A stretch of DNA of 64,000 nt from Tragulus kanchil (Eukaryota > Chordata > Mammalia > Artiodactyla > Tragulidae): contig JAIOJX010000025.1 of NCBI GenBank assembly GCA_022376925.1, forward strand, positions 187,797,801 to 187,861,800, in the 5' to 3' direction. This document shows positions 1,246 to 64,000 of the stretch, piece after piece. Under the pieces are notes generated by a model, which had not been told where the DNA came from, did not search any database, and worked only from the letters and a program-made list of their open reading frames with translations. A program made the position numbers and the translations under genes. Every line of letters begins with the position of its first letter. Position 1 is the first letter of the stretch.

Positions 1246-3502
1246 TGAATTGCCCATCACAAACGGATGAGTTTTAATTATAGTGAAAAATGAACAGAAA
1301 CATGGGTACAGAGTTTCAGTCTGGGATCCTTTAGTTGCAGCGCTCAGGACCTGTGGTGTCAGAGCGTGAGCTCTTAGCGGCAGCGGGTGGGAGCTGACTC
1401 CCTGACCGGGGCTGGAGCGCTGGTTCCTGCAGAGGCGCTCGGAATCTCAGCCCCTGGACCTCAGGGCTGTCCCAGGATACTGTTTTCCTTGTTATTTTTC
1501 AGGGACTCTTTATGTAATATATGCATTAGCCCTTTGGCAACTATGAATCAAGTATTCTCCCAGTTTTTTTTATTGGTCTTTGATTATGTTAATTTTTGTT
1601 GTTGTTCAAACATTTTAAAATTTAAAAAAGTTTTAACCATAAAATATCTATTCGTCCTTTTACTGCTTGTCTTTGAACCAAAAGCTAATAAAGGGAAAAA
1701 AGCATTAATCCAAAGGAAGGCAAGAAAAAATAGAAAATAGAACAGAATAAATGAAAACAGCATAATAACACATCCAAAAATATGTGATTATCTTAAACTT
1801 AAAAGACTAAGCACTCTGATTGAAAGAATGTAATAGCCACTGCTCTTGCTCTCTGTGATGGCCCACACTCTGTAGAGTGTACTTTCTTCTGAATCTGAGT
1901 AAACCCATTTCTTTTTTTTTTAATATTTATTTATTTATTTTTGGCTATTCTGGGCTTTCACGGCTGCCACAGGCTCTTCTCTAGTTGTAGGGAGTGGGGG
2001 CTACTCTCTAGTGGAGGTGAGCAGGCTTCTTGTCGCGGTGACTTCTCTTGTTGTGGGACTCGGGCTCCAGGGCACACGGGCTTCAGCAGTTGCGGCCCAT
2101 GGGCTCCATAGTTGTGGCTCCGAGGCTCTAGAGCACAGGCTCCATAGCTGTGGCTCACGGGCTTAGTAGCCCCACAGCATGTGGGACCTTCACGGATCAG
2201 GGATCAAACTCGTGTCTCCTGCATTGGCAGGCGAACTCTCCACCACTGAGCTACCAGGGAAGCCCTGAATAAATCCATTTCTTATGTATCAAAAAAATAT
2301 ATATATATAATAATCACGCTGAACAAAGAACCCAAGCCCAGCTATATACTGCTTGTGAAAGTGAAAGTTAGCGGGGATGAATTGCCCATCACAAACGGAT
2401 GAGTTTTAATTATAGTGAAAATGAACAGAAACATGGGTACAGAGTTTCAGTCTGGGATCCTTTAGTTGCAGCGCTCAGGACCTGTGGTGTCAGAGCGTGA
2501 GCTCTTAGCGGCAGCGGGTGGGAGCTGACTCCCTGACCGGGGCTGGAGCGCTGGTTCCTGCAGAGGCGCTCGGAATCTCAGCCCCTGGACCTCAGGGCTG
2601 TCCCAGGATACTGTTTTCCTTGTTATTTTTCAGGGACTCTTTATGTAATATATGCATTAGCCCTTTGGCAACTATGAATCAAGTATTCTCCCAGTTTTTT
2701 TTATTGGTCTTTGATTATGTTAATTTTTGTTGTTGTTCAAACATTTTAAAATTTAAAAAAGTTTTAACCATAAAATATCTATTCGTCCTTTTACTGCTTG
2801 TCTTTGAACCAAAAGCTAATAAAGGGAAAAAAGCATTAATCCAAAGGAAGGCAAGAAAAAATAGAAAATAGAACAGAATAAATGAAAACAGCATAATAAC
2901 ACATCCAAAAATATGTGATTATCTTAAACTTAAAAGACTAAGCACTCTGATTGAAAGAATGTAATAGCCACTGCTCTTGCTCTCTGTGATGGCCCACACT
3001 CTGTAGAGTGTACTTTCTTCTGAATCTGAGTAAACCCATTTCTTTTTTTTTTAATATTTATTTATTTATTTTTGGCTATTCTGGGCTTTCACGGCTGCCA
3101 CAGGCTCTTCTCTAGTTGTAGGGAGTGGGGGCTACTCTCTAGTGGAGGTGAGCAGGCTTCTTGTCGCGGTGACTTCTCTTGTTGTGGGACTCGGGCTCCA
3201 GGGCACACGGGCTTCAGCAGTTGCGGCCCATGGGCTCCATAGTTGTGGCTCCGAGGCTCTAGAGCACAGGCTCCATAGCTGTGGCTCACGGGCTTAGTAG
3301 CCCCACAGCATGTGGGACCTTCACGGATCAGGGATCAAACTCGTGTCTCCTGCATTGGCAGGCGAACTCTCCACCACTGAGCTACCAGGGAAGCCCTGAA
3401 TAAATCCATTTCTTATGTATCAAAAAAATATATATATATAATAATCACGCTGAACAAAGAACCCAAGCCCAGCTATATACTGCTTGTGAAAGTGAAAGTT
3501 AG
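1246..3502 (+). repeat. Tandem duplication 1 (about 1.13 kb)
   Basis: Copy A is 1246-2371 and copy B is 2378-3502, separated by six extra bases (cgggga). One A is lost from an A-run near the start of copy B. The duplicated unit contains a SINE. No exon is involved. Confidence 0.97.
1912..2265 (-). mobile_element. tRNA-derived SINE (repeated at 3043-3396)
   Basis: It is in inverted orientation, with a poly-T/ttatttattt start and an end reading gagctaccagggaagccc. It is carried in both copies of duplication 1. Confidence 0.85.
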
Positions 3503-3715
3503 TCACTCAGCCATGTTTGACTTTTTGTGACCCCGTAGACTAGCCCGCCAGGCTTCTCTGTCCATGGGATTTCCCAGGCAAGAATACTGCATTGGTTGCC
3601 ATTTCCTTCTCCTCGGGGTTGAACCCGCGTCTCCTGCATTGGCAAGCAGGGTTTTGTTTTTGGTTTTTTTTCTTTTGGCAGGCAGGTTCTTTACCCCTGA
3701 GTCACATCCCCACAA
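3500..3715 (-). mobile_element. Bov-tA SINE
   Basis: It is recognised from the inverted Bov-tA core (gactttttgtgacccc, ccaggcttctctgtccatgg, caggcaagaatactgc). This family is specific to ruminants. Confidence 0.85.
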
Positions 3716-4370
3716 AAGGCATTGTTTATTAATTTTTTAAAAAATTTTCAATTGGAGTAGAGTTGATGTGCAATGTTATATGGTATAGGTGTACAATATG
3801 GTGCTTCACAAGCTTTAAAGGTTATACTCCATTTATAGTCATTACAGCACATTGACTGGATTCCCTGTGCTGTGCACTGTATCACTGTAGCTTGTTTCAT
3901 ACGTGATAGTTTGTGCTTCTTAATCTCCTGCCTCTGCTTCCCCTCTCCCTGCCCTCTCCCCAGTGGTAACCACTAGCTTCTGGCTTTGCAGTCGTTCAAT
4001 GTTCTCATGATGGTTAATGACAAAACGGATCGTTCACTCCTTACAGATCATCATGTATTAGGACTTTTACCACTTCCCAGGCAACACCGTGATCTCAGGA
4101 CCTTTCGACTCTCTTCACCCCTTCCTACCTTTTGTGTTGTTCCTAACCATACATTTCACTTCTACGTATATTTAGATCCCATAAAGTGACAATACTGGTG
4201 TCTTTTGTAGTCAGTAATCTACAGTCATAAGATGTCCTCCAGCTCTGGTGTGTGTCTTGTCTTAAAGTCATTGGTATTTTCTACAAAGCCTTCCTCTGGT
4301 TAGTGTCTTCATGATATATCATGTCCTGTCTGTTAACCATCAACCCTTCTGTGTTTTTGTATTTATATGG
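3716..4370. mobile_element. L1-like 3' region fragment
   Basis: The stretch with gttgatgtgcaatgtt, ggtgtacaatatggtgc and ttccctgtgctgtgcactgt resembles artiodactyl L1 3'UTR sequence. It is diverged, and the boundaries are approximate. Confidence 0.5.
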
Positions 4371-4413
4371 TGTGTTTTCCAGGCAGTGTTGTTTTTTCAG
4401 TTGTATTGTTTAT

Positions 4414-4722: not shown

Positions 4723-5337
4723 CTCTACACAGTGTTTCTAAAATTTAATCCATTCTGACCATCTTTGTCTCTAAATTGGAGCCTCTTTCTCATTTACATG
4801 TAATCACTGATACATCTAGGTATAGATCTCTCCTTTTAGTGCGGTTTTCTATTTGTCCCACTTTTTCTGTACTTCTTTTTCTCTCTTGTTTTGTCTTTTT
4901 GAGGTCTAAGTGTTTTTGGTTTTTCATTTCATTTCCCACTCTGTTACCTTGTTAGCTATATATTCTTTCCAGAGACTCAAGCATCCTTCACTTATAAAAA
5001 TGTGATATCAAGTTGTATAAGGGTGTAAAGCTGTATTTTTACCACTTCTCAGACTATAGAGTCCTTTAACTCTGTTTATCTCCCATATAACTTAATTCTA
5101 CATGTATTTTGAACCACACAAAACATTACACTGTGCTTTGTACAGTCTGTGTTCACTTTAACTTTGCTGAGATATCCCATCCATTGATCTTTATTCCTTC
5201 CCGCATCTCTGTGCTTCCGTGTGGAGTTGTTTTCCTTCTGTCTCAATGTTTCTTTTAGTGCAGGCATTCACATGACAGATTATCTCAGTTTCTGTCTGTC
5301 TGAAATATATTTTATTCTCCCTTTGAGAAAATGATCC

Positions 5338-5612
5338 GTTTATTTATTTGGGGCTGTGCTGGCTCTTTATTGCTGCTCTCAGGATCTCTCTAGTTTCGGC
5401 GAGGAGGAGCTAGTCTTTGCTGAGGATTGTAGGCTTCTCATTCGGTGGCTTTTCTTGTCGTGGAGCATGGGCAATATAGCTTGGGCTTCAGTAGCTGCAG
5501 CATGTGGGCTTAGTTGCTCCAAGGCATGTGGGATCTTCCCAGACCAGGAGTCCAACCCGTGTCCTCTGCATTTGGAAGGCAAATTCTTAGCCATTGGAAA
5601 ACCAGGGAAGTC
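5338..5612 (-). mobile_element. tRNA-derived SINE (repeated at 6445-6719)
   Basis: It starts atttatttggggctgtgctg and ends aaaccagggaagtcc. It is doubled by duplication 2. Confidence 0.8.
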
Positions 5613-5757
5613 CTTCCTACCTGTATATTTGAGGCATATGTGTGCTGGAGTTAGAATTCTACTTTAGCAAGTTGTTAGGATTTGCGTTTGGCTTTTTGTT
5701 GTTGTTGTTAGCATCTCTATGATTCCATTCTGGTATTTTTGTTAAGAAGTCACTGTT

Positions 5758-5902
5758 AGGGACTTCTCCGGTGGCCCAGTGGCTGAGACTCCTGGCTTCC
5801 AATGCAGGAGGCCTGGGTTCGAGCCCTGGTCAGATCCCACATACTGCAACTAAGACCCAGCACAGTCCAATAAATAAATATTATATTAAAGAAAAAAAAG
5901 AA
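5758..5902 (+). mobile_element. Short tRNA-derived SINE (repeated at 6865-7009)
   Basis: It starts agggacttctccggtggccc, has the B-box ggttcgagccc and ends in an A-rich tail (aagaaaaaaaag). It is doubled by duplication 2. Confidence 0.85.
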
Positions 5903-8900
5903 GTCACTGTTATTTGCATTGTTGCTTCTTTGGAGGCAATCAGTCCTTCTAGGTGGTTTTAAGATTTTCTGCTTGTCTTTGCTTTCAGCAGTTTCATATT
6001 ATGCTGAGATGCAGTTTTCTTTGGATCTGTATTGTTTGTGGTTGGTATTGTTCCCTTTGTCCATGGTTTTATATCTTTCATCATCTTTGGAAATTTCTCT
6101 GTCATTATCTCGAGAAATGTTGCTTCTCTCCCTTCTGTCTCCCCTCCTTCTGGGACTGTGGTTACACCTATGTGAGAACTTCTCGCCATTTTCCATGTCT
6201 CTCTCATGCTCTTCTGTGTATTCTCCATCTTTTTTCTCTACATGCCTCAGGCTGGGCATTTGATCTAAACTTCAGTTATTTTGCCTGTGTTCCATTCAGT
6301 AGTCTTCTCTGCAGGTATAGCCAACGTGTGGAGTTGTTTTCCTTCTGTCTCAATGTTTCTTTTAGTGCAGGCATTCACATGACAGATTATCTCAGTTTCT
6401 GTCTGTCTGAAATATATTTTATTCTCCCTTTGAGAAAATGATCCGTTTATTTATTTGGGGCTGTGCTGGCTCTTTATTGCTGCTCTCAGGATCTCTCTAG
6501 TTTCGGCGAGGAGGAGCTAGTCTTTGCTGAGGATTGTAGGCTTCTCATTCGGTGGCTTTTCTTGTCGTGGAGCATGGGCAATATAGCTTGGGCTTCAGTA
6601 GCTGCAGCATGTGGGCTTAGTTGCTCCAAGGCATGTGGGATCTTCCCAGACCAGGAGTCCAACCCGTGTCCTCTGCATTTGGAAGGCAAATTCTTAGCCA
6701 TTGGAAAACCAGGGAAGTCCTTCCTACCTGTATATTTGAGGCATATGTGTGCTGGAGTTAGAATTCTACTTTAGCAAGTTGTTAGGATTTGCGTTTGGCT
6801 TTTTGTTGTTGTTGTTAGCATCTCTATGATTCCATTCTGGTATTTTTGTTAAGAAGTCACTGTTAGGGACTTCTCCGGTGGCCCAGTGGCTGAGACTCCT
6901 GGCTTCCAATGCAGGAGGCCTGGGTTCGAGCCCTGGTCAGATCCCACATACTGCAACTAAGACCCAGCACAGTCCAATAAATAAATATTATATTAAAGAA
7001 AAAAAAGAAGTCACTGTTATTTGCATTGTTGCTTCTTTGGAGGCAATCAGTCCTTCTAGGTGGTTTTAAGATTTTCTGCTTGTCTTTGCTTTCAGCAGTT
7101 TCATATTATGCTGAGATGCAGTTTTCTTTGGATCTGTATTGTTTGTGGTTGGTATTGTTCCCTTTGTCCATGGTTTTATATCTTTCATCATCTTTGGAAA
7201 TTTCTCTGTCATTATCTCGAGAAATGTTGCTTCTCTCCCTTCTGTCTCCCCTCCTTCTGGGACTGTGGTTACACCTATGTGAGAACTTCTCGCCATTTTC
7301 CATGTCTCTCTCATGCTCTTCTGTGTATTCTCCATCTTTTTTCTCTACATGCCTCAGGCTGGGCATTTGATCTAAACTTCAGTTATTTTGCCTGTGTTCC
7401 ATTCAGTAGTCTTCTCTGCAGGTATAGCCAATAGGGTGTTAAAGTGAAACCCTACTTGACTATACTTGTGAGTTCTTAATTTTATTTACTGTATTTTTCA
7501 GTTTTGCAACCTGCCATTTAATTAATTTGTATAGTTTTCAATTCTTTGCTCCAGTTCTCAGCTTGTCATTTGTCTTAAACATGCTAATCACAGTCATTCT
7601 AACATACATAACTGATAACTTCAATATCTGTGTATCCCATAGATCTGTTTCTGCTGTTTCTCTCTTGGTTTTGAGTCATTTGATCTTATTTCCTGGGATG
7701 CCAAGTGATTTTCGAACAAAAATGAGAAGTTACAGCTATGAAAAAATGAGAGGTTACAGCTACAAATAGTGTTATCTTCCTGCAAAGATGACTTCGTTTT
7801 GCTTCTGGCAGTTAGACTATGACCAGAGGGCCTTAGTCCACCCTGAGATGGATCCATTGGGAGGACAGGCTTCAGCCTTTGTGAAAGCTAGTGAGTTTCA
7901 AGGTCACATTTTCCCCTAGGGTGCCCAGGATGCTCTCTCTTGGTAAGCCCTGAGCCTCAAGTTTTTCCCCGGTCCCATAGACTTCAGGCAGCTGAAGTCA
8001 GCCTTTCAGCTCTCGCTTGAAAAATCAGCAACTCCTCAAGGGCGAGTCTGGCCCAACCCCAGGCTTGCTTCTCTGCCTTTCCCCTCCAGTGCCCAAGTTC
8101 TTACTGCCTCGGGGTTTCTCTGACTGCTCCCTCCTGCCTTCACATGGAGGCTTTTTGACATTTCCTCCGGCATTTATAATTGCCCTGCATGGAAACTGAT
8201 CTACAGCGTGCTGGGCCACTGCTTCCAAAAGCAGATAATTCTCCAGATCGTTTAAAATTTATACATTGAAATTTTGTTCTTATGTTTTTTTGCCCTTAAG
8301 AATCATCCTAAGTACTTATTAAATAAGTTTTTATGTTCCAATGACTGTTTTAGGTGCTGGGGTAAGCACTCATGTTCCTTTGTTCGTCTTTTGATTGCTT
8401 AAAGTGATCAATATTTGCATCTTCCTTCTAATAAAGTACATGACTAAGCATGTGCTTTTATCCGCCTTCACTCCACTCCTGTGTTAATACTGTTGAGAAT
8501 TCCTGTCATGCACTTAAAGATTTCTCTCTTACATTTGACCTAAGCTTTTTTGAGGAAAGAAAAACCAACAATAAAGTTGCCAAGATACTGTATTCCCCTT
8601 ACTTCTCCAATCTCAAACAATTCTGACGCTGTTTCTCTTATTATGGAATCCTCCTTCTGGAGTTTTCTCTGGTGGCTTTGTACGGCAGGCCTTCCCACCT
8701 GTCAGTGTTTATCAACTCAATTTCCTGAACTCCCTTCTGGAGCCCCCGCCTGTTCTGGCCTCGTCTGACTGCCCTCTCTCAGCCTGATGCACATCTGTCA
8801 GCCTGTGCTGCTCCTCGCCATCCTCTGGGGACCCCTCTGCCGCTCTCCTGTGTCGGATGCCCGCTTCCTGCTTCCCTTTCCTGAGTTACCCCTCTGTCTT

Positions 8901-9048
8901 GGTGGAACATACCTTTATTTGGCTCCCTCAGGAATGGTACATGGAAGATTCATTTTTGAAGACTTACTTGATTGAAAATGTCTCACATTTGGTTGGTAAT
9001 TGGGCTGGGAATAGGATTCTGTGTTGGAGATGATTTTCCTTCCAATTT

Positions 9049-9245
9049 CTTTTCTTTATTTTCTGGCCGCGCCAGGTCTTAGTTGCCACACAGGAGGTCT
9101 TCATTGCATCATGGGGGATCTTTAGTTGCAGCCTGAGAACTCTTAGTAGCAGCATGTGGGAGCTAATTCCCCGACCAGGGATGGGACTTAGGCTTTCTGC
9201 ATTGAGAGCTCAGAGTCTTAACAACTGGACTACCAGGGAGGTCCC
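9049..9245 (-). mobile_element. tRNA-derived SINE (repeated at 10131-10327)
   Basis: It starts tttattttctggccgcgcc and ends gactaccagggaggtccc. It is doubled by duplication 3. Confidence 0.8.
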
Positions 9246-9529
9246 TTCCGTCTGACTTCTGAAAGCAGTGTTTCCTTTTAATATTTTGTGGGATTTTTTT
9301 TCCCTTCATTTGCCAGATGTTTTTCTTCTTTATAGGTCTTTCCCAAGGACTGTCTCTTGCAAAAAGAAGTTATTTTGTACCATTCTCTGCTAACTAACAT
9401 ACAAGTGTTAATGATTTGAATAGAAAATAGAAATTACCTACGAGGATCCAAGAAAAGGGAGAAAACCCAAAAGGAAAATAACCTTTTCAGAGGAAACAGA
9501 AAAAGAAGGAAGAACTGCACTTCCACAAA

Positions 9530-9550
9530 CACACAAACACACACACACAC
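9530..9550. repeat. CA dinucleotide microsatellite (repeated near 10612-10632)
   Basis: A short (CA)n run with one interruption, doubled by duplication 3. Confidence 0.8.
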
Positions 9551-11118
9551 TCGTGCATCCAGGCCATCTAGTGCTTTCAAACCTCCAAAGGACGGAGGAT
9601 GCCTGTGGTCCCAGCTGGTCCCCAGCCCCAGAGCACGGACAGGCTCCCTTCAGTCCGTGGCTGAGTGGGCAGGCTGTGTCGGGAGGACAGGGGAGTCCTA
9701 GGAGAGTGGGTTGGCAGAGTCGAAGGCGTTGGCTCCCCGCTCCTTTCTGTCTGCTGCTCACAGCTGTGACCTCTAGGAACCGGCTTACCCCGTTTCCCAC
9801 TTCCCCTTGCTCCTGTTCCCTCAGTCATCGCTGGACCTGGTGCCACTGTCAGCCTCAGGGTGGAATTCACGCAGAGCAGCTGCTCCCCACTCAGGCAGCA
9901 GCGCCTGCTCTCTGGACGGCGTTCGCTGGCCCTTTCTAATTTAGGAAAAATCCTTCCAGCAAGGAAACAAATGGAGAAAACCCCGATAGGATACCTTTAT
10001 TTGGCTCCCTCAGGAATGGTACATGGAAGATTCATTTTTGAAGACTTACTTGATTGAAAATGTCTCACATTTGGTTGGTAATTGGGCTGGGAATAGGATT
10101 CTGTGTTGGAGATGATTTTCCTTCCAATTTCTTTTCTTTATTTTCTGGCCGCGCCAGGTCTTAGTTGCCACACAGGAGGTCTTCATTGCATCATGGGGGA
10201 TCTTTAGTTGCAGCCTGAGAACTCTTAGTAGCAGCATGTGGGAGCTAATTCCCCGACCAGGGATGGGACTTAGGCTTTCTGCATTGAGAGCTCAGAGTCT
10301 TAACAACTGGACTACCAGGGAGGTCCCTTCCGTCTGACTTCTGAAAGCAGTGTTTCCTTTTAATATTTTGTGGGATTTTTTTTCCCTTCATTTGCCAGAT
10401 GTTTTTCTTCTTTATAGGTCTTTCCCAAGGACTGTCTCTTGCAAAAAGAAGTTATTTTGTACCATTCTCTGCTAACTAACATACAAGTGTTAATGATTTG
10501 AATAGAAAATAGAAATTACCTACGAGGATCCAAGAAAAGGGAGAAAACCCAAAAGGAAAATAACCTTTTCAGAGGAAACAGAAAAAGAAGGAAGAACTGC
10601 ACTTCCACAAACACACAAACACACACACACACTCGTGCATCCAGGCCATCTAGTGCTTTCAAACCTCCAAAGGACGGAGGATGCCTGTGGTCCCAGCTGG
10701 TCCCCAGCCCCAGAGCACGGACAGGCTCCCTTCAGTCCGTGGCTGAGTGGGCAGGCTGTGTCGGGAGGACAGGGGAGTCCTAGGAGAGTGGGTTGGCAGA
10801 GTCGAAGGCGTTGGCTCCCCGCTCCTTTCTGTCTGCTGCTCACAGCTGTGACCTCTAGGAACCGGCTTACCCCGTTTCCCACTTCCCCTTGCTCCTGTTC
10901 CCTCAGTCATCGCTGGACCTGGTGCCACTGTCAGCCTCAGGGTGGAATTCACGCAGAGCAGCTGCTCCCCACTCAGGCAGCAGCGCCTGCTCTCTGGACG
11001 GCGTTCGCTGGCCCTTTCTAATTTAGGAAAAATCCCCTTCCAGCAAGGAAACAAAAATATGTGTAGAAAATCCCCAGATATTTGGAAATAAAGGTGACAT
11101 TTCTGAATAACTCATTTG

Positions 11119-14109: not shown

Positions 14110-14367
14110 CCTTTTTTTTTTTTCCGGCGACTTCTATTGATCTTTCATTTATTTCCATCTTTGTTCTTATGGCCTCCCATCGCAGTGGCCTCGCTTGTCG
14201 CAGAGCACCAGCTCTGGGCGCATGTGCTCCAGAGCGCTGGCTCGGTAGTTGGACACATTGGTCCAGCCGCTGCGTGGCACGTGGGATCTTCCCAGGCCAG
14301 GGATCGAACCGGCGCCCCTTGCACTGCAAGGCGGTGTCCTTACCCACTGGACCACCAGGGAAGCCCT
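14110..14367 (-). mobile_element. tRNA-derived SINE (mostly repeated at 15317-15542)
   Basis: It ends ggaccaccagggaagccc. The second copy lacks the first part because duplication 4 starts inside this element at 14142. Confidence 0.85.
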
Positions 14368-14389
14368 CATCTTTACATTTTTTTTTTTT

Positions 14390-14710
14390 CAAAGATTTAT
14401 TTATTTATTTATTTTGGGCAGGGGTCGGGTTGGGGAGGGAGGGGAGCGGCGGGCCACTTCTATTGGTTTTTCATTTCTCTATTTTCATCCGTCTTTGTTC
14501 TTTGGCTCCTGTGGGCCTCCCATTGTGGTGGCATCTGTCGTTGCAGAGCGCCGGCTCTGGGCGCATGCGCTCCAGAGCTCTGGCTCAGTAATTGGATACA
14601 TCAGTCCAGCCGCTCTGCGGCACGTGGGATCTTCCCAGGCCAGGGCACGAACCGGCGCCCCTTGCACTGCAAGGTGGTGTCCTTACCCACTGGACCACCA
14701 GGGGAAGCCC
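14390..14710 (-). mobile_element. tRNA-derived SINE (repeated at about 15565-15885)
   Basis: Full-length inverted copy with GCGCATGCGC at 14561-14570 (and 15736-15745 in the duplicate), ending accaccaggggaagccc. Confidence 0.85.
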
Positions 14711-14889
14711 TCTTTACATTTTTAGAGCCAATCCTATCACTAAAATTATCAGACCATCCTCTTCTGGAACTGAATTCTCCACATTTAGATCCTTCATCCT
14801 TTTTTTTTTTTTTGCTTTAATTTGCTTTTTCTCAAATCCTCTGAGAGAGTCTGTAACAATCCTGCACCCACATAATAGCTGCATTTTCT

Positions 14890-15116
14890 TTTTTTTTTTT
14901 TTTTGGCTGCTCTGGATCTTTGTTGTTGTGCAAGGGCTTTCTCTAGTGGCTGTGGCTCCTCGTTTCAGAGCACAGGCTCTAGAGTGCAAGCTTAGTGGTT
15001 GTGGCACACAGGTTTAGTTGCCCCAAGGCATGTGGAATCTTCCCTGACCAGGAGTCAAATCCCTGTCACCTGCATTGGCAGGAGGATTCTCAACCAATGG
15101 ATCACCATGGAGTCCC
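14890..15116 (-). mobile_element. tRNA-derived SINE (repeated at about 16064-16290)
   Basis: Poly-T start then ggctgctctggatctttg, ending ggatcaccatggagtccc. It is the more diverged SINE type in this cluster. Confidence 0.75.
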
Positions 15117-41262: not shown

Positions 41263-41285
41263 CCCCAGGCAACAGCGGAGAAGAG

Positions 41286-47907: not shown

Positions 47908-48275
47908 TCACTCCTCGCGCAGCTGCAGGCGGTAGCGGTGGTAGCGGACCTGGAAGAAGAGGCGCTCGGCCAGCGAGAGGGTCATGCCGGGCATCACGTA
48001 GCGGTCACTCGAGCCCATGTGTCTGAAGCCCAGCGACTCGTAGAGCTTGTGGGCGGCCACCTTGACGGCCGTGGTGCCCAACACCACCGCGGAGTAGTTG
48101 TGCGCCAGGGCGAACTCCAGCACCGTGCGGCCCAGCGCCTTGGCGATGCCCTTGCCGCGGAAGCGCGCGTCCACCGACATGCGCATCAGCTCCACGGTGT
48201 TGTCCTCCGCGTGCGCTCGCGCCGCCACGATGCCCACCACGTTGCCGTCCAGCACGGCCACCCAGAAGCAGGAGC
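47908..48275 (-). CDS. NAT8L: NAT8L exon 3 (GNAT catalytic core, stop)
   Basis: This exon has 368 bp including the stop at 47908-47910. It encodes SCFWVAVLDGNVVGIV, the strand before the acetyl-CoA loop (VELMRMSVD), the RFRGKGIAKALG loop, YSAVVLGTT, HKLYESLGF and the C-terminus. RxxGxG is the pyrophosphate-binding motif of GNAT enzymes. It is single-copy. Confidence 0.97.
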
Positions 48276-51200
48276 CTGCAGAGGACGGGGAGGAGCTCAG
48301 GCCGCCGGCACCTCCACCGACAGCCGCGGCGCGGGGCCCTCTGGGCAGGAGAGCCGGCCCCACCCCCGGCCCGGACGGCAGAGACCTGAGGGCGGAGGAG
48401 AGAGGGAGCCCGGGCACCAGCCACAGGAAAGCTTCCTCTGGTGACCCGAGGCCCAGGGGCTCTAGGAGGCGAGGCTGGGGCAGCGCCCACTCCAAGGAGC
48501 TCAGCCTGCACACACCCGCCGCCCCGCTGCCGTGTTGCCCTGCCCCGGCCTCCCTGCTGGAGAGGCCCGGCCTCCCCCTAAAGCTCCTTCACGTGCCCCC
48601 AGCTGGAAGACACTCGACCCGCTGCCCGGCGCCTCGGGGCGCCCACCGCCTCGTCCTCCAGCACCGCACCCCCACCGGCCCGTCACCCTGCCGCCTGGGC
48701 GCCGACTGCCCGACCGGCTGACCTGCCCACTCTCCAGGGCCTCGGGCTCTCCCCACCCACCCAAGCCCGGGTCAGGGGTCAGCACGGCCTCAGGGGCCTC
48801 GTGCCTGCCAGGCCTCCGTGTCCCCAGCGCAGGAGCGGCTTCAGGCGCCCAGCGTGGCTCCCCTCTTCTGCTGTGGGGTCTCCCTGCAGACCCGCCGGCT
48901 GTCTCAGGAGGGTGGCCGAGCCGGCCGGATCTCACCCCCAGGGGACTGCACCCCCGGGAGGGCAGGCCGCGCTGGGCTCTGGTGCTTCGGCCCCTCCTGT
49001 CCTGGGCAGAGCCCGGCTGAGGCCGGAGCTCCAGGACGCTGATAAGATGCTTTGTTTGGGCCTGGGCAAGGGTCAAGGAGAACCAAAGGCGCCCCAGGCC
49101 AGCCGGGCAGCCTCGGGACTTGAGAAAGGACCAGCCACCAGAGCACCAGAGCTGGCCGTGCTAGGGGGGTCGCCCCAGCCAGGGACCCTTGCCTCTCCTG
49201 GCCCGCCACCCCCCGGTCCTCACCAGTGTCCCGCAGGCCCTAGCCAGCCATTCAGGGCCCTTCTGCACCGACCTTCCTGCCCCTGGGGAGCCTCGTACCC
49301 CAGCCCCGGGCATGGGAAGCACCTGCCCCCGCCCCGAGGCCCCTCTGAAGGACAACCCCCCGGAGGAAATGGCTCCAGACCAGGTCCCAGCATCCCCACC
49401 GAAGGCCAGGGCTGGGACGAGACCCCGGGCTTAGGGAGTGGCCCGGGGCCAGAGTGGACACTGTGACCTAAACCCCTGTTCCAGCACCCTCAGCCCCCAG
49501 AGATCTCTGCCCCTTCCTGAGCCGGCTCCGCACCCTCTGATCCTCTGTCCCTGCCACACAGGGTCCCAGCATTCCAGGTCAGCCTGGGAGCCGAGGGCAC
49601 ACCACTCTGGCCCAAGAGAGGTGAGGCCGGCAGCGGGGAGAGGGCAGCGGCAGCCTGAGGAGCACGGCGGAACAGCGTGGCCCAGGGCCAGCTCGGGCCA
49701 TCAGCGCCCTGCCCTCAGAGGACACAGGACGGAAGCCAGCAACACTCGGGGAGGAGGAGGCGCGACGTCAAGCCCAGCTCGGCCAGCCTGCGGCACCCCA
49801 ACCCCTGGCCAGCGCCCTGGGTCGCCAAGCGCCTCAGGTCCCGGGTGCGCCCCGCCCAGGCGGCCCTGGGCCCGGCCCTGTTCTCCAGCCCCGCGAGGCT
49901 GCTGGGCAGGGCGGCCCCGGAGAGGCGCGGCCAGAGGCCCGAGACTCACCGGGCGGCTTCATGTAGCACTGCTCGATGTCAGCCATGTCCGTGCGCAGCG
50001 CGCAGTCCAGGTAGGCGAGGACCACCTTCCGGCTGTAGTAGTAGCGCAGGGCCAGCAGCGCGGCGGGCACCAGGCAGGTCAGCAGCAGCGAGCGCGTCAG
50101 GGCGAAACAGAGCGCTGCGGGCAGAGGGGCGTGGTGAGCGGCCGGGGGCAGGGGACACCCCCACGGGGACCGGGGCCGAGGCCGGGGAAGTCCCCCGCGG
50201 CACGGGCCCCTGGTTCCTAGCCAGTGCGGCGCATGCGCAGAGGAGGCACCCAGCCGAAGAGCCCGGCCGGTTTCCCTGGAGGAGCAGAGAGCCCCGCACA
50301 GCTGCTGCTTCCGCTTCTCCCTGTTGCCGAACTTCTCGCCATAAGGACGAGGCGCCTTCACACCTGGCATCACAGGACTTCCCAGCGTCCTGCGCACAGC
50401 GGCGGCCCGGGCAGGCCTCCCTCGGTGGCCGGCGGGCACAGCCCAGGGCACAGCTACGGAGGGGCCCCTGCCCGTCACCCTGGACCCCCAGCGGGGAAGG
50501 GGCTTCGCCCACATCCCGGCCCACACGAGGCTGGGGAGTCAAAGCGCTGCCAGGCCAGGCACCGTCCCCACTTCGGGAACTGGGGGCCCAGCCAAGCTCC
50601 CGCGGCCGTTGTGAGAACAGGAGCCAGGGAGGAAGGCGGAACCTGCTTCCAGCCGATGCTGACGCGCCCGCTGTGAAAACGCCGCTGCTACGTGACCTTG
50701 GGAAGTCCCACCCGCGCGGCCTCAAGCTCCTCGTCTATGAAATGGGGACGGCAACCCTCCGCTGCAGGGTCTCAAGGGGCAAAGCCTCAAAGCCCCTGCG
50801 GGGCGCCCACCGTAAGGCCCAGCGCCCTGCCCTCAGAGGACCGGCGGAGCCAGCAACACTCGGGGAGGAGGAGGCGCGACGTCAAGCCCAGCTCGGCCAG
50901 CCTGCGGCACCCCAACCCCTGGCCAGCGCCCTGGGTCGCCAAGCGCCTCAGGTCCCGGGTGCGCCCCGCCCAGGCGGCCCTGGGCCCGGCCCTGTTCTCC
51001 AGCCCCGCGAGGCTGCTGGGCAGGGCGGCCCCGGAGAGGCGCGGCCAGAGGCCCGAGACTCACCGGGCGGCTTCATGTAGCACTGCTCGATGTCAGCCAT
51101 GTCCGTGCGCAGCGCGCAGTCCAGGTAGGCGAGGACCACCTTCCGGCTGTAGTAGTAGCGCAGGGCCAGCAGCGCGGCGGGCACCAGGCAGGTCAGCAGC

Positions 51201-52846
51201 AGCGAGCGCGTCAGGGCGAAACAGAGCGCTGCGGGCAGAGGGGCGTGGTGAGCGGCCGGGGGCAGGGGACACCCCCACGGGGACCGGGGCCGAGGCCGGG
51301 GAAGTCCCCCGCGGCACGGGCCCCTGGTTCCTAGCCAGTGCGGCGCATGCGCAGAGGAGGCACCCAGCCGAAGAGCCCGGCCGGTTTCCCTGGAGGAGCA
51401 GAGAGCCCCGCACAGCTGCTGCTTCCGCTTCTCCCTGTTGCCGAACTTCTCGCCATAAGGACGAGGCGCCTTCACACCTGGCATCACAGGACTTCCCAGC
51501 GTCCTGCGCACAGCGGCGGCCCGGGCAGGCCTCCCTCGGTGGCCGGCGGGCACAGCCCAGGGCACAGCTACGGAGGGGCCCCTGCCCGTCACCCTGGACC
51601 CCCAGCGGGGAAGGGGCTTCGCCCACATCCCGGCCCACACGAGGCTGGGGAGTCAAAGCGCTGCCAGGCCAGGCACCGTCCCCACTTCGGGAACTGGGGG
51701 CCCAGCCAAGCTCCCGCGGCCGTTGTGAGAACAGGAGCCAGGGAGGAAGGCGGAACCTGCTTCCAGCCGATGCTGACGCGCCCGCTGTGAAAACGCCGCT
51801 GCTACGTGACCTTGGGAAGTCCCACCCGCGCGGCCTCAAGCTCCTCGTCTATGAAATGGGGACGGCAACCCTCCGCTGCAGGGTCTCAAGGGGCAAAGCC
51901 TCAAAGCCCCTGCGGGGGCGCCCACCGTAAGGCCCAGCGCCCCTCGCTCTGCCTCCTCGGCGCCCTCCCTGCCCGCGCCCGGCACCCCAGGGAGCTGGCT
52001 GTCTTCCCCCCATAAATTAGCACTTGGAGCCGCCGAGGCCACCTCCCCCGCCCCACGGATTATATATAGGTACACGCGCCAGGCGCGGGGCCTCGCAGCG
52101 GCGCTACCTGCGCCGCCCCGCCCCCACCCGGGATGACCGAGCAGGGGACGCCGGTGGAGACCCCAGGACGCCCCTCCCGCAGCCCCGGCATCCAGCCCGC
52201 ACTGGTTCCCACGCCCCCGCCCCGCGCGCCTTGGCCGGACGCCCAGACCTGCCCCGGCGCTGGGGGCCACCGCGCGCCAGGCCGCCGCAGAACGTGCGCG
52301 TCCGAGGGGAAGGCAGGGGAAGGCAGGGGTCCGCCTCCCTGCCGGGACCGGGCCCGGGCCCGAGGGCGGGGGCCGAGAGGGCCGGAGGAAGTCCCGAGCG
52401 CGTCCCCGGAGGGCCGGGCGGGCGCGGACTGCGGCAGGCGGGGGTGCGCCCGGCCGGCCGAGGCCCCGACCCCGCCGTCCCCGCGGGGTCCCCGCGCACT
52501 GACCGGCCAGTAGGGCGTAGAGCAGCTGCGTGCGCGGGTGGTGTCGCAGGCCGCGGAAGGCCGTGTTGGGGATGCGCTCCATGATGCCGTCGTAGAAGAT
52601 GCGGCGCGCCGCCTCCTGCTCCGCCGCGCGGAACTCGCGGATGCACACGCCGCGCCCCTCCGGCGGCTCCGCGCCCCCAGCGCCGCCGAGCAGCCGGGGC
52701 CCCGGCGCAGGCGGGGGCGCGGCGGGCAGCGGGGGCCACACGGCGGCGGCGAGCAGCGCGTCCTTCTTGGCCCCCGGCAGCGCCTCATGGTCCTCGGCGG
52801 CCACGATCTTCGTCTCGCAGACCATGTCGGGAGGCCCACAATGCAT
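47908..52846 (-). CDS. NAT8L: Aspartate N-acetyltransferase (NAA synthase), NAT8-like
   Basis: Three exons (52504-52846, 51064-51228, 47908-48275) join in correct phase to a 291-aa protein. The protein makes N-acetyl-L-aspartate from acetyl-CoA and aspartate, mainly in neurons, at the ER/mitochondrial membrane. Residues 1-67 are an Ala/Pro/Gly-rich linker after the conserved start MHCGPPDMVCETKIVA. Residues 68-107 begin the GNAT fold (CIREFRAAEQ). About 108-141 is a hydrophobic membrane hairpin. The acetyl-CoA loop RFRGKG is at about 207-212, and the protein ends RYRLQLREE. The length is slightly below the human protein (about 302 aa, from memory) because of the Ala/Pro linker. Exon 2 is present twice in the assembly; using both would insert 55 codons in frame. 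The gene is convergent with POLN. Confidence 0.96.
48276..49701 (-). other. NAT8L intron 2, unique part
   Basis: Lies between exon 3 and duplication 10. No repeat or RNA gene was recognised. Confidence 0.5.
49950..50114 (-). CDS. NAT8L: NAT8L exon 2, second (distal) copy
   Basis: This is identical in coding sequence and splice sites to the exon at 51064-51228 and belongs to tandem duplication 10. If real and spliced, it would add 55 codons in frame and double the membrane hairpin. That would probably disturb the topology of the catalytic domain. An assembly duplicate is more likely. Confidence 0.85.
50690..50800 (+). mobile_element. MIR-like fragment in NAT8L intron (repeated at about 51804-51914)
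   Basis: The order cgtgaccttgggaagtccc, ctcctcgtctatgaaatggg matches the MIR core in sense orientation. It is doubled by duplication 10. Confidence 0.65.
51064..51228 (-). CDS. NAT8L: NAT8L exon 2, promoter-proximal copy
   Basis: This 165-bp exon has acceptor (minus) ctgcccgcag and donor gtgagt. It encodes LCFALTRSLLLTCLVPAALL, ALRYYYSRKV and ends IEQCYMKPP, which is the membrane hairpin and following linker. An identical copy lies 1114 bp away at 49950-50114. One copy is enough to give the normal protein. Confidence 0.94.
52504..52846 (-). CDS. NAT8L: NAT8L exon 1 (coding part)
   Basis: This exon carries 343 coding bases from the ATG at 52846. It encodes MHCGPPDMVCETKIVAAEDH, a low-complexity Ala/Pro/Gly stretch, GVCIREFRAAEQEAARR, and the start of the membrane segment (LLYALLA). 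The donor GT is at 52503-52502. It is single-copy, extremely CpG-rich, and lies within a CpG island together with the promoter. Confidence 0.96.
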
Positions 52847-55772: not shown

Positions 55773-57907
55773 GCGCCAGTGTCCCTTCGGGACAAGGGCA
55801 AATAAGCTGGGATGAGGGGCTGAAGAGTGAGGCAGGTGGTGGAGGCCAAGCGGGAACTCCACCGAGAGCATGTGCAAAGGCCCTGGGGTGATGGGGGCGG
55901 GGGTGCCGAGCCGCTCGTGCCCCCGAAGACACTTCCGGACAGGCAGCCCCGACAGCTGATTTTACCACATGGTTTTCTAGAAGCTGCTTGAAGGCACGCA
56001 CCAGAAGGCGGCTCCAAACCAGAAGAGGGAGGCGGGCAGCGAGGACGCCCCGCGGGCTGGGAGCCGGGGGCACGGGCCAGGGAGGGGACCCGGCGGGAAT
56101 GACGGACTGGGGGAGTGAAAAGTGTGACAAAGGCAGAGGAGAGGCAGCAATAAGGCGAACACACTCCAGGAAAACGATCGCTGGCCCGAAGGCGAGCGTC
56201 CCGTTCGTGCAGCCCGAGCAGCCGTGCCGGAGGCTCTGGGTCCACTCGGGCGGAACGCGCGGGGCCCCTCCAGAATGCGGCCCCCGCCACTGGCCCCGAC
56301 CGCCGGCGAGGCTCCGCCTTCGCCAGAGCCCCCTGCGCCCCAGGCCACCTCTCTGCTGACACCACCGCCGACCTTCCCCACCCCAACCGTCCCCACTCCT
56401 GTCAAGGGGCAGAGTCGCCAGAGCGGCCCGTGCAGGGTCCAGCCTCGGGGTGACTGACCCCGGGCCTGTGGCAGGCTGACCTCTGCCGGAGCCCTGGGGT
56501 CTCACCTCCCGCCTCGCGCCTGCCCACCTCCCGGGGGGCTCGCCTCCTGCCTTCTCACGCCCGGCTCTCCCGTCCACCCAGCCTCCCCTCCAGCACCTCC
56601 CAGGCGTGTCGGCCCGGCAGCCTCCCCGGCCGCTCCGCTCGCCCGTCCTCCTCCCCGCCGAGCGCACTTGTCTTCAGACACACCTGGGGTCTGGCGCTCC
56701 GCACGTGGTCCCGGCTGCTGCCCCCAGCCCCGGCCCCTCCTCAGCTCCGGTGGCTGCGGCGTGGGCCCGTGGGCCCCGATCCTGTCCCCGACCCTCACCC
56801 ATCCTCAGCCAGCAGCCAGGAACGTCCTGTTCACACAGGCGCCAGTGTCCCTTCGGGACAAGGGCAAATAAGCTGGGATGAGGGGCTGAAGAGTGAGGCA
56901 GGTGGTGGAGGCCAAGCGGGAACTCCACCGAGAGCATGTGCAAAGGCCCTGGGGTGATGGGGGCGGGGGTGCCGAGCCGCTCGTGCCCCCGAAGACACTT
57001 CCGGACAGGCAGCCCCGACAGCTGATTTTACCACATGGTTTTCTAGAAGCTGCTTGAAGGCACGCACCAGAAGGCGGCTCCAAACCAGAAGAGGGAGGCG
57101 GGCAGCGAGGACGCCCCGCGGGCTGGGAGCCGGGGGCACGGGCCAGGGAGGGGACCCGGCGGGAATGACGGACTGGGGGAGTGAAAAGTGTGACAAAGGC
57201 AGAGGAGAGGCAGCAATAAGGCGAACACACTCCAGGAAAACGATCGCTGGCCCGAAGGCGAGCGTCCCGTTCGTGCAGCCCGAGCAGCCGTGCCGGAGGC
57301 TCTGGGTCCACTCGGGCGGAACGCGCGGGGCCCCTCCAGAATGCGGCCCCCGCCACTGGCCCCGACCGCCGGCGAGGCTCCGCCTTCGCCAGAGCCCCCT
57401 GCGCCCCAGGCCACCTCTCTGCTGACACCACCGCCGACCTTCCCCACCCCAACCGTCCCCACTCCTGTCAAGGGGCAGAGTCGCCAGAGCGGCCCGTGCA
57501 GGGTCCAGCCTCGGGGTGACTGACCCCGGGCCTGTGGCAGGCTGACCTCTGCCGGAGCCCTGGGGTCTCACCTCCCGCCTCGCGCCTGCCCACCTCCCGG
57601 GGGGCTCGCCTCCTGCCTTCTCACGCCCGGCTCTCCCGTCCACCCAGCCTCCCCTCCAGCACCTCCCAGGCGTGTCGGCCCGGCAGCCTCCCCGGCCGCT
57701 CCGCTCGCCCGTCCTCCTCCCCGCCGAGCGCACTTGTCTTCAGACACACCTGGGGTCTGGCGCTCCGCACGTGGTCCCGGCTGCTGCCCCCAGCCCCGGC
57801 CCCTCCTCAGCTCCGGTGGCTGCGGCGTGGGCCCGTGGGCCCCGATCCTGTCCCCGACCCTCACCCATCCTCAGCCAGCAGCCAGGAACGTCCTGTTCAC
57901 ACAGGCG
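55773..57907 (+). repeat. Tandem duplication 11 (1066 bp)
   Basis: Copy A is 55773-56838 and copy B is 56839 to about 57907, abutting with about three shared bases. No differences were noticed. It lies in intergenic sequence upstream of NAT8L. Confidence 0.97.
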
Positions 57908-58129
57908 TCAGTGTGCCCACCCCCGAGGCTCTGGGGGGGCCCTCTCCTCCGCCGGCGCCCTGCCCTCCTGACCCTCCGCCGGCCTCTGCTGGCAGACCGC
58001 TGACAGCCACAGCCTGGCCCCTCTGCCCGAGGTTCCCTGCCTCTCCCCACCTCCTCCCAACAAGCACCTCGCCCCCCGGAGGCTTTCCACAAGCCCCTCG
58101 GCCACCGCCGGCCTTTCTGCTCACAGGAA

Positions 58130-60342
58130 CTCCGATGCCCAGTTACATTTCCATGCTGGATAAACCAGTAATCTGTGGTTTCAGCGTGTCCCGGGTATCG
58201 CTCAGGTCCCGCACAGTGGAAGGCCCTCCCAGGGAAGCACTCGCTCTGTCCACCAAGAGGGCCCAGGGCCCAGGGAGCCTGGGCGGCCCTGAATGGCCAC
58301 GTGACTGAGGCCCACCAATGGGATGTGGGCAGCTTCCGCGGTGCCCCGAGGGAAGCACTGTCTCTGCCACCCTCTGCTCCTCTCTGGGGCCCCAGGACAG
58401 GTGGCCCCGGCGCACCCCAACCCTGAAGGCCAACCTGGGCCTGCCACGGCCGCCGCTCCCCGTCCCCCGGCCTCGCTCTGGCCGGGTTTAAAGTTCACCA
58501 GCCTCCTCACCACCAGACATGGAGCTCAGCCTCCCGCCACGGCCAGGGCCGGGCTCTGATCGGGTCACTGTGGTCCTGACGCCTGGGTCAGACCTGCACG
58601 CTGGGCAGCTCCACGCAGAGAAATGAGGCCAAGGGCCGGGAAGCCACCGGCAGGGAAGGGCCTGGGACAGAGGATCTGAAGAGCTGGCCGGACACGCCGG
58701 GCAGGGAGCTGCGTCGCCCTCCGGGGCTGGGAGCCGAGTGTCCGGCTCTCCTGCCGAGACGGCGGTGCCGTGGCACAGACGGCACGGCGAGGACCGGAGG
58801 CCACGGAGGCCACACGGCCCGTCCTGGCCCCTTGCGACCATGGCTCGGCCGTGCTCCTCGATGTTCCTTATGATGTGCACGCATTACTTTGGGGAAAAAA
58901 ATCACTATGACATTTACTCAAAAAAAACCCAGAATGAAAGGGGGGAAGGAGCAGCACCTCCTGCCCGGTGCTGTGCACACACGTGTGGACGTGCGTGTGT
59001 GCGCTGCCGGTGCTCCCGGCGCCCGTGCGCTGGGCTGGGCCCGCTGGAGGGAGCCAGGAGCCAGGGCGGAAGCCAGGAGGCCCCAGCCCTCTCTTCCAGA
59101 GGGCCTCCCAGCGCCCGATCACCCGCCTCCTGGCTCCTGCCGCTTGGTTACAGTGGCCTTGGCCACGTGGGGTCCACCAGCCGACCACAGGAGCCCGACT
59201 GCAGGCATCCTCTGCAGCACCCAACACTAGAAACCCCCCCCGCCCTCCGATGCCCAGTTACATTTCCATGCTGGATAAACCAGTAATCTGTGGTTTCAGC
59301 GTGTCCCGGTATCGCTCAGGTCCCGCACAGTGGAAGGCCCTCCCAGGAAGCACTCGCTCTGTCCACCAAGAGGGCCCAGGGCCCAGGAGCCTGGGCGGCC
59401 CTGAATGGCCACGTGACTGAGGCCCACCAATGGGATGTGGGCAGCTTCCGCGGTGCCCGAGGGAAGCACTGTCTCTGCCACCCTCTGCTCCTCTCTGGGG
59501 CCCCAGGACAGGTGGCCCGGCGCACCCCAACCCTGAAGGCCAACCTGGGCCTGCCACGGCCGCCGCTCCCCGTCCCCCGGCCTCGCTCTGGCCGGGTTTA
59601 AAGTTCACCAGCCTCCTCACCACCAGACATGGAGCTCAGCCTCCCGCCACGGCCAGGGCCGGGCTCTGATCGGGTCACTGTGGTCCTGACGCCTGGGTCA
59701 GACCTGCACGCTGGGCAGCTCCACGCAGAGAAATGAGGCCAAGGGCCGGGAAGCCACCGGCAGGGAAGGGCCTGGGACAGAGGATCTGAAGAGCTGGCCG
59801 GACACGCCGGGCAGGGAGCTGCGTCGCCCTCCGGGGCTGGGAGCCGAGTGTCCGGCTCTCCTGCCGAGACGGCGGTGCCGTGGCACAGACGGCACGGCGA
59901 GGACCGGAGGCCACGGAGGCCACACGGCCCGTCCTGGCCCCTTGCGACCATGGCTCGGCCGTGCTCCTCGATGTTCCTTATGATGTGCACGCATTACTTT
60001 GGGGAAAAAAATCACTATGACATTTACTCAAAAAAAACCCAGAATGAAAGGGGGGAAGGAGCAGCACCTCCTGCCCGGTGCTGTGCACACACGTGTGGAC
60101 GTGCGTGTGTGCGCTGCCGGTGCTCCCGGCGCCCGTGCGCTGGGCTGGGCCCGCTGGAGGGAGCCAGGAGCCAGGGCGGAAGCCAGGAGGCCCCAGCCCT
60201 CTCTTCCAGAGGGGCCTCCCCCGCGGCCCGATCACCCCGCTCTCCTGGCTCCCTGCCGCTTCTTGGTTACAGTGGCCTTGGCCACGTGGGGTCCACCAGC
60301 CGACCACAGGGAGCCCGACTGCAGGCATCCTCGCTGCAGCAC
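58130..60342 (+). repeat. Tandem duplication 12 (offset 1110-1115 bp)
   Basis: Copy A is 58130-59220 and copy B is 59245-60342, with 24 bp of filler. The first 270 bp of copy B have lost single bases in at least five runs. The last 120 bp of copy A have lost bases in several others. The middle is identical. Confidence 0.97.
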
Positions 60343-60686: not shown

Positions 60687-60715
60687 GGTGAGGGGACAGC
60701 GCTGGCCCAGGGCGC

Positions 60716-62134: not shown

Positions 62135-62469
62135 GGCCGAGCGGAGGGACCCGGGCGCCCTGCGGCAGCCGCCGGTCAGCCGCGCCCGCCCCTCCGGCCG
62201 GCGGCCCGCCCTCGGCCCCGAGCCCCGCCGGAGCCCGGTCTCGAGAGCCCCGCCGGCCCCGGCCGCCCGGGGCCAGGCGCCCTCCCCCGGGGCCCCGCCG
62301 CCGGGCCCTGCTCCCCGCCCCGGCCCCCGCCACGCCCCGGGCCCGGCGACCCCTCCCCTCCCCTCCTCCTCCGCCCGGCGAACCCCCGCTTCGCCTTTAC
62401 CGCGGTTCGGGGACCCCGCGACAGCAGCGCGGGCGACTGGAGAAAGACGCTCTGCGTCCGGCGCGCACC

Positions 62470-62479
62470 GCGCATGCGC
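62470..62479. promoter_or_regulatory. NRF1-type palindrome in C4orf48 promoter CpG island
   Basis: A perfect GCGCATGCGC lies about 335 bp upstream of the C4orf48 ATG in a TATA-less CpG island. Its placement suits a proximal promoter element. A near-CRE (cgacgtcg) lies about 40 bp further upstream. Confidence 0.55.
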
Positions 62480-62671
62480 CCGACCCCGCCCGGGGTCCCC
62501 CCCATCCGACGTCGTCGTCAAGGAAACCCTGGGGCTGCGCGAGCCGCCGGCTTAAAGGGACCGAGGCGGCTCCAGGACTCCGCGTGCCCAGCCCCAGCCG
62601 GGATCTGCACCCGAGCACCGTCAGGCCTCCAGGCGCGCACCTTGGAGGGCCGCCTGGAGGCGGCGGCACCT

Positions 62672-64000
62672 GGCCCGCACCTCCCACGCCGCGCCGGCGG
62701 GAGCGAAGTCGAGGAAGCGGGCAATCTGCCGCGGGAACGGGGCGGCCCCGGGGGCCAGGGGCGTCCCTGGGCCGATCCTGGTGAGGGGCTCGCTGCACGC
62801 GGGGCGGGGTGGGGCACGTAAAAGCGCCGCAGCCTCTGCTCGCGGGCCCGCGGGGTCCAGTCGGGGCGCGCTGCCCGGGGAACTTCGGACTCAGGAGTGA
62901 CCGGGCCCGCGGGCCGGCGAGGGACCCACGGTCTCCGCTCCTCACTCTGGTCCGGCCTCGTCCCTGAGCCTCCGGCGAGAGGAGCAGGTAAGCGGCCGCC
63001 GGCCGGCCCGGTCCCCTCCCGCCACGCCGCGCCCGGCCGGCCGTCCGCCGCACGCTCCCCGCCCGTCGCGTGACGGCGGAGGGGCCGCTTGGCCTCTCTG
63101 TGTCCTTTGCGCCCTCGTGACCGCACAGGGTGGCCCCGCGGGCGCCCGATGGAGCGGGCTTCAGGCCCCCAGCCCCGTCCTTCTGAGAAGGATGGCGAGG
63201 ACGAGGCCGGGCACCGACGAGGACGCGGCGACCCCCGGGGAGCGCGCCAGGCCCGCGTCCCTGCCCAGCGCCGGGGCCGCCAGCAGCTCGCGCGGCGCGT
63301 GGCGGCGCCGGGTCCCCTTCGTGGCGGCAGCGCCGGGCCCGCACCTCCCACGCCGCGCCGGCGGGAGCGAAGTCGAGGAAGCGGGCAATCTGCCGCGGGA
63401 ACGGGGCGGCCCCGGGGGCCAGGGGCGTCCCTGGGCCGATCCTGGTGAGGGGCTCGCTGCACGCGGGGCGGGGTGGGGCACGTAAAAGCGCCGCAGCCTC
63501 TGCTCGCGGGCCCGCGGGGTCCAGTCGGGGCGCGCTGCCCGGGGAACTTCGGACTCAGGAGTGACCGGGCCCGCGGGCCGGCGAGGGACCCACGGTCTCC
63601 GCTCCTCACTCTGGTCCGGCCTCGTCCCTGAGCCTCCGGCGAGAGGAGCAGGTAAGCGGCCGCCGGCCGGCCCGGTCCCCTCCCGCCACGCCGCGCCCGG
63701 CCGGCCGTCCGCCGCACGCTCCCCGCCCGTCGCGTGACGGCGGAGGGGCCGCTTGGCCTCTCTGTGTCCTTTGCGCCCTCGTGACCGCACAGGGTGGCCC
63801 CGCGGGCGCCCGATGGAGCGGGCTTCAGGCCCCCAGCCCCGTCCTTCTGAGAAGGATGGCGAGGACGAGGCCGGGCACCGACGAGGACGCGGCGACCCCC
63901 GGGGAGCGCGCCAGGCCCGCGTCCCTGCCCAGCGCCGGGGCCGCCAGCAGCTCGCGCGGCGCGTGGCGGCGCCGGGTCCCCTTCGTGGCGGCAGCGCCGG
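62672..64000 (+). repeat. Tandem duplication 13 (664 bp, reaches window end)
   Basis: Copy A is 62672-63335 and copy B is 63336 to the window end. The window stops where one full period ends, so further copies cannot be excluded. The copies look identical. The unit is CpG-island sequence with a splice-donor consensus. Confidence 0.95.
62985..62993 (+). other. Consensus splice donor of unknown exon
   Basis: GCAGGTAAG forms a near-perfect 5' splice site on the plus strand and is repeated at 63649-63657. It could end a non-coding first exon of a plus-strand gene such as NELFA. No matching coding sequence was recognised. Confidence 0.3.

What the first reader, a model, noticed from the sequence alone, without database searches (positions are those of the whole stretch)
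1246..64000. Thirteen regularly sized tandem duplications across one locus
Head-to-tail near-identical pairs start at 1246, 5218, 8909, 14142, 21061, 26300, 33694, 38076, 41286, 49702, 55773, 58130 and 62672. Twelve have an offset of 1066-1175 bp and one of 664 bp. Junctions are 2.4-8.4 kb apart and fall in SINEs, old L1, introns, exons and CpG islands alike. No sequence feature is shared by the boundaries. Together they make up about 14 kb of the window. Such uniformity independent of content argues for a process acting on assembly pieces rather than on chromosomes. The alternative is a burst of replication-linked tandem duplication.
Basis: partly seen in the sequence, partly recalled or inferred. 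Interest (0 to 1): 0.8.

Follow-up and report, generated by a model that had tools for sequence, protein, structure and literature searches.

The report
Assembly seams left as false duplications
Thirteen doubled stretches in this mammalian (ruminant-like) sequence are almost certainly seams where an assembly program failed to merge overlapping pieces, so the shared kilobase was written twice; one seam gives a gene a second exon that is probably not real.

Summary
In detail: 13 direct tandem pairs, 12 with offsets of 1066-1175 bp (mean 1112, s.d. 30) and one of 664 bp whose match ends on the window edge. The copies differ by 39 indels and 13 substitutions, and 43 of these 52 differences lie within 150 bp of a unit end. 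Of 37 indels within 300 bp of a junction, 36 are bases missing from the copy end that touches the junction. Chromosomal duplication does not predict this; separately built pieces with poor ends do. One of five longer spacers reads as a noisy continuation past copy 2. The pieces would be 2.4-8.4 kb long and share about 1.1 kb, which suits wtdbg2, whose graph vertices are 1024-bp read segments; the failed-join step is recalled and inferred. The locus is POLN and, by recalled motifs, NAT8L. Pair 49702-51942 doubles NAT8L exon 2 in frame: 291 aa with one copy, 346 aa with two. No reads or second assembly could be examined. Verdict: assembly artefact (0.97), probably of the wtdbg2 type (0.6).

The parts
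1246..3502 (.). tandem pair 1, offset 1132, 6-bp spacer
5218..7431 (.). tandem pair 2, offset 1107, copies identical and abutting
8909..11055 (.). tandem pair 3, offset 1082, 19-bp spacer that resembles the sequence following copy 2
14142..16486 (.). tandem pair 4, offset 1175, 4-bp spacer; copies differ in two poly-T lengths
21061..23242 (.). tandem pair 5, offset 1086, 10-bp overlap at the junction
26300..28488 (.). tandem pair 6, offset 1098, 11-bp spacer; lies between two POLN exons; 4 bases missing from the last 25 bp of copy 1
33694..35993 (.). tandem pair 7, offset 1150, abutting; one substitution; lies between two POLN exons
38076..40263 (.). tandem pair 8, offset 1108, 25-bp spacer; bases missing at both inner ends
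41283..43476 (.). tandem pair 9, offset 1106, 19-bp spacer
49702..51942 (.). tandem pair 10, offset 1118, 8-bp overlap; duplicates NAT8L exon 2
55773..57918 (.). tandem pair 11, offset 1066, 13-bp overlap
58130..60342 (.). tandem pair 12, offset 1115, 24-bp spacer; 5 gaps at the start of copy 2 and 9 at the end of copy 1
62672..64000 (.). tandem pair 13, offset 664, match cut by the window edge
52504..52846 (-). NAT8L coding exon 1 (343 bp)
   Evidence: gene name from recalled motifs
51064..51228 (-). NAT8L exon 2, one copy (165 bp)
49950..50114 (-). NAT8L exon 2, identical other copy (165 bp)
47908..48275 (-). NAT8L coding part of exon 3, with the GNAT domain
25548..25682 (+). POLN exon; DNA_pol_A profile 222-266 (below the curated cut-off); PDB DNA polymerase nu, 3e-19
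29733..29861 (+). POLN exon; DNA_pol_A profile 262-304; PDB DNA polymerase nu, 5.1e-14
37133..37234 (+). POLN exon with motif C (motif recalled); PDB DNA polymerase nu, 2.2e-4; no Pfam hit at 1e-3

Best explanation
These are assembly seams. Shown: neighbouring pieces of 2.4-8.4 kb share ends of about 1.1 kb, both ends are written out in full, and the piece ends at the seam differ from the outer copies mainly by missing bases. Inferred: the program laid out overlapping units, built a separate consensus for each, failed to align the tail of one with the head of the next and concatenated them, so the shared segment appears twice. The size suits wtdbg2: a graph edge runs from vertex to vertex, a vertex is a 1024-bp read segment, and adjacent edge consensuses share one vertex. 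Deletion-prone raw reads (nanopore type) and ragged ends could stretch 1024 raw bases to about 1.1 kb of final sequence. Confidence 0.97 is for an assembly artefact of any kind; within it, 0.6 is for the wtdbg2 reading.
For: Size uniform and not correlated with GC or homopolymer content in 12 pairs. 39 indels against 13 substitutions; 24 of the 39 indels extend a neighbouring identical base. 43 of 52 differences within 150 bp of a unit end, 14.5 expected. Near-junction indels have one polarity in 36 of 37; because they cluster (15 of 52 differences in pair 12, 11 in pair 8), a safer count is by piece end: 11 of 11 untied ends agree, one is tied (read). The spacer at 9971 matches the right flank (p 0.0017, 0.001). 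1024-bp vertices: passages in PMC7506008 and PMC10989838. Ruminants (yaks) have been assembled from nanopore reads with wtdbg2, Racon and Pilon (PMC9448747, passages); that this window comes from one is not claimed.
Against: No reads, coverage or second assembly seen. The mean offset exceeds 1024 by 9 %, and the 664-bp pair needs an extra assumption. Of 5 spacers of 10 bp or more only one resembles its flank; it also resembles the tail of copy 1 more weakly (p 0.009), the one at 42369 resembles the tail of copy 1 (p 0.002), and three resemble nothing near. Four of 13 pairs hold 5 substitutions more than 300 bp from both unit ends. That a failed join duplicates a vertex is recalled and inferred; no passage seen here states it. 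The assembler of this genome is unknown.
Confidence: 0.97

Rival explanations
1. Another assembly route (a part of the 0.97): separate contigs with untrimmed overlapping ends were joined by scaffolding, gap filling or assembly merging.
For: Failed merging and gap filling raised duplicated gene counts in one study (PMC9635638, passages). Errors at inner ends fit any contig ends.
Against: Such overlaps should vary in length; here 12 of 13 lie within 1066-1175 bp. The window holds no N.
Confidence: 0.3
2. Heterotype false duplication (also an artefact): the two copies are the parental alleles placed in series.
For: Five substitutions in 4 of 13 pairs lie more than 300 bp from both unit ends, so a few heterozygous sites may be mixed in.
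Against: Pair 2 is identical over 1107 bp, and pairs 1, 3 and 7 have one difference each; differences sit mainly at the seams. Allelic blocks would not share one size.
Confidence: 0.03
3. A real burst of replication-linked tandem duplication in the animal or its lineage.
For: Direct orientation, spacers in 7 of 13 and short overlaps in 4 of 13 resemble end-joining junctions. Exact overlaps of 8 bp or more are rare under a simple null (0.0005 per junction).
Against: No mutational process that I know removes single bases from the inner ends only (36 of 37). The null assumes exact identity; comparing outer head with outer tail in 12 pairs gave a lowest p of 0.0496. Indels outnumber substitutions 3 to 1.
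Confidence: 0.015

Closest known systems
Homotype false duplication (Vertebrate Genomes Project term; Ko et al. 2022, PMC9516828, abstract and passages seen)
   Same: Under-collapsed copies of one locus caused by read errors, nearly without allelic differences.
   Different: [quoted passage not shown] here there is no gap, and the copies are strictly tandem with one size.
wtdbg2 fuzzy Bruijn graph vertices (PMC7506008 and PMC10989838, passages seen; Ruan and Li 2020 not held)
   Same: A fixed unit of 1024 read bases, close to the 1.1-kb offsets.
   Different: The passages describe the vertex, not a duplication error; that step is inferred.
Replication-linked tandem duplication (FoSTeS/MMBIR type, recalled)
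   Same: Head-to-tail copies with short spacers or microhomology.
   Different: A single unit size (s.d. 3 % of the mean in 12 of 13) and differences confined mainly to inner ends are not expected.

Membership tests
Homotype false duplication | No haplotype-specific k-mers in the copies | tested here: inconclusive
   9 of 13 pairs have no substitution more than 300 bp from both unit ends, 4 of 13 hold five; read k-mers not available
[quoted passage not shown]
   no reads available
Homotype false duplication | Assembly gap between copies (usual, not required) | tested here: not met
   window holds 0 N; trait described
wtdbg2 shared-vertex seam | Offset near one vertex (1024 raw bases) | tested here: inconclusive
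   12 of 13 offsets are 4-15 % above 1024; one is 664
wtdbg2 shared-vertex seam | Genome assembled with wtdbg2 | not testable with these tools
   source unknown; the genome search 'own' unanswered in 9 of 9 tries
Independent-consensus seam (any program) | Errors concentrated at inner ends and of one polarity | tested here: met
   36 of 37 indels within 300 bp of a junction are bases missing from the junction-side copy
Chromosomal tandem duplication | Copy differences spread along the unit without preference for the junction side | tested here: not met
   43 of 52 differences within 150 bp of unit ends; polarity 36 of 37
Heterotype false duplication | Allelic substitutions along the copies | tested here: not met
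   5 interior substitutions in 13 pairs, pair 2 identical

The most novel reading that the evidence does not exclude
A real, very recent burst of kilobase tandem duplications with one preferred unit length (about 1.1 kb) struck a GC-rich, gene-bearing region, doubling NAT8L exon 2 in frame and so creating a NAT8L with two membrane segments.
Probability: 0.015. Interest if true: 0.85.

Novelty: not a real feature. Interest (0 to 1): 0.15.

Why it matters
As biology it is probably nothing; as an error class it matters. It adds about 14 kb to this 64-kb window with no N to warn the user, and one seam doubles a coding exon in frame, so a gene predictor could report a 346-aa NAT8L with a repeated membrane segment (the membrane role of that segment is recalled). 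The signature, tandem pairs of one size with bases missing at the inner ends, can be seen from the sequence alone and could be screened for in other assemblies.

Tried and rejected
Microhomology as a mechanism: exact overlaps of 8 bp or more in 4 of 13 looked extreme (5e-11), but that null assumes exact identity of the true boundaries, and the overlap of the last pair has 3 mismatches. Comparing outer head with outer tail in 12 pairs (the last left out because the window edge cuts it) gave p 0.143, 0.143 and 0.0496 for three and above 0.5 for nine, so I do not use it.

Spacer origin: anchored alignment of the 7 spacers to two flanks (14 comparisons) and local alignment of the 5 spacers of 10 bp or more to four neighbouring stretches (20 comparisons and the reverse complements). 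One clear flank match (9971), one match to the tail of copy 1 (42369, p 0.002), three unexplained.

Size against composition: no correlation, 12 pairs, the 664-bp one left out.

Gene content: ORFs of at least 95 aa lying outside second copies numbered 311; a low-complexity filter left 218, of which 201 have at least 100 aa. Of these I scanned 147; ORFs wholly in the first 19.9 kb were not scanned, nor were shorter ones, so absence of other genes is not shown. Hits: DNA_pol_A in 2, GNAT families in 1. An earlier scan of 10 long ORFs gave none. Locating scans: no hit in 10 each, two of 10, one of 10. PDB: one search took an ORF in the wrong frame for the motif C exon and found nothing; one search took the right one and found DNA polymerase nu (2.2e-4). 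Searches found nothing. The GNAT exon's PDB matches are to other GNAT proteins (best 2.1e-6), so they do not prove the name NAT8L. Rfam at gathering scores: 0 matches. TRF, periods up to 500: 9 rows of short repeats, no smaller seam-like pair.

Literature: six searches. Seven papers were opened, as passages only; none of the passages describes this seam error, and most listed papers were not opened, so I do not claim that it is unpublished. The wtdbg2 paper is not held. The notebook entry wrongly gives spacers in 8 of 12; it is 7 of 13.

Not run: the search for homologous proteins, structure prediction, and scans of viral, genome or metagenome contigs; none of those collections is meant to hold this animal.

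Full report
Observation. Twelve have offsets of 1066-1175 bp (mean 1112, s.d. 30) and the last 664 bp. The last match runs to base 64000, so its far end is unknown. The offsets sum to 14,007 bp, and the starts are 2357-8419 bp apart. The other hits above 90 % identity are 196-333 bp long and thousands of bases apart; TRF, with periods up to 500, finds only short arrays.

Anatomy. Read as overlapping pieces, the 12 pieces between junctions are 2382-8439 bp long, and neighbouring pieces share an end whose length equals the offset. At the junctions 7 of 13 have 4-25 extra bases, 2 of 13 abut and 4 of 13 overlap by 8-14 bases, the 14-base one with 3 mismatches.

The telling test is where the two copies differ. 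Global alignment of each pair gives 39 indels and 13 substitutions (three of the substitutions belong to an over-extended match of the last pair). Of these 52 differences, 43 lie within 150 bp of a unit end, against 14.5 expected. Of 37 indels within 300 bp of a junction, 36 are bases missing from the end of copy 1 or from the start of copy 2, the two ends that touch the junction; the outer copies have the bases. The binomial figure (5.5e-10) treats indels as independent, which they are not: they come from 9 pairs and crowd in pairs 8 and 12. Counted by end, 11 of 11 untied ends agree and one is tied (read). Twenty-four of 39 indels extend a neighbouring identical base. More than 300 bp from both ends there are 2 indels, both in poly-T of pair 4, and 5 substitutions, in pairs 5, 7, 8 and 9.

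Interpretation. A duplication on a chromosome yields two equal copies, and later mutation has no reason known to me to strip single bases from the inner ends only. Two separately built consensus pieces predict this, since a piece is worst supported at its own end. The spacer at 9971 adds a possible direct trace: 17 of its 19 bases align to the sequence that follows copy 2, from the seventh base on, with one mismatch and two missing bases (p 0.001; 0.0017); it also resembles the tail of copy 1, less well (p 0.009). Of the other four spacers of 10 bp or more, one resembles the tail of copy 1 and three resemble nothing near.

Why one size. Overlaps between ordinary contigs should vary in length. 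A fixed overlap points to a program that cuts its layout into units sharing a constant segment. Passages in PMC7506008 and PMC10989838 state that wtdbg2 takes 1024-bp segments of reads as graph vertices. From recall, its consensus step works edge by edge, adjacent edges share a vertex, and edge sequences are then joined by overlap. A failed join would leave one vertex twice. Twelve offsets are 4-15 % above 1024, which could fit deletion-prone raw reads and ragged ends but was not tested; the 664-bp case needs a further assumption such as a trimmed end. The assembler is unknown, so this specific mechanism gets about 0.6 and an assembly artefact of any kind 0.97. Yak genomes were made from nanopore reads with wtdbg2 followed by Racon and Pilon (PMC9448747, passages); no link to this window is claimed.

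Locus. POLN is on the + strand: exons at about 25.5, 29.7 and 37.1 kb match DNA polymerase nu in PDB (3e-19; 5.1e-14; 2.2e-4), in order along the chain; Pfam DNA_pol_A is found in the first two (2.5e-6, below the curated cut-off, and 5.5e-10) and not in the third. NAT8L is on the - strand: GNAT domain at 47.9-48.3 kb, exon 1 at 52504-52846 and the coding part of exon 3 at 47908-48275; the name rests on recalled motifs. Exon 2, 165 bp, occurs twice and identically, at 51064-51228 and 49950-50114, inside pair 10. With one copy the spliced frame gives 291 aa, with two 346 aa, both open. So the seam mimics an in-frame exon duplication. Pairs 6 and 7 lie between POLN exons.

Limits.

Noticed in passing
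49950-50114 and 51064-51228, - strand: NAT8L exon 2 is doubled in frame by pair 10, which could let annotation report a false 55-residue internal repeat.
   Followed up: yes
21363, 21424, 34535, 38610, 41815: Five lone substitutions between copies far from any seam; they may be heterozygous sites resolved differently in the two pieces.
   Followed up: no
62672-64000: The one pair of different size (664 bp, 79 % GC) ends on the window edge; whether it continues or is a partly trimmed seam is open.
   Followed up: no
39159-39183 and 59221-59244: Junction spacers of 25 and 24 bp that match neither flank clearly.
   Followed up: partly
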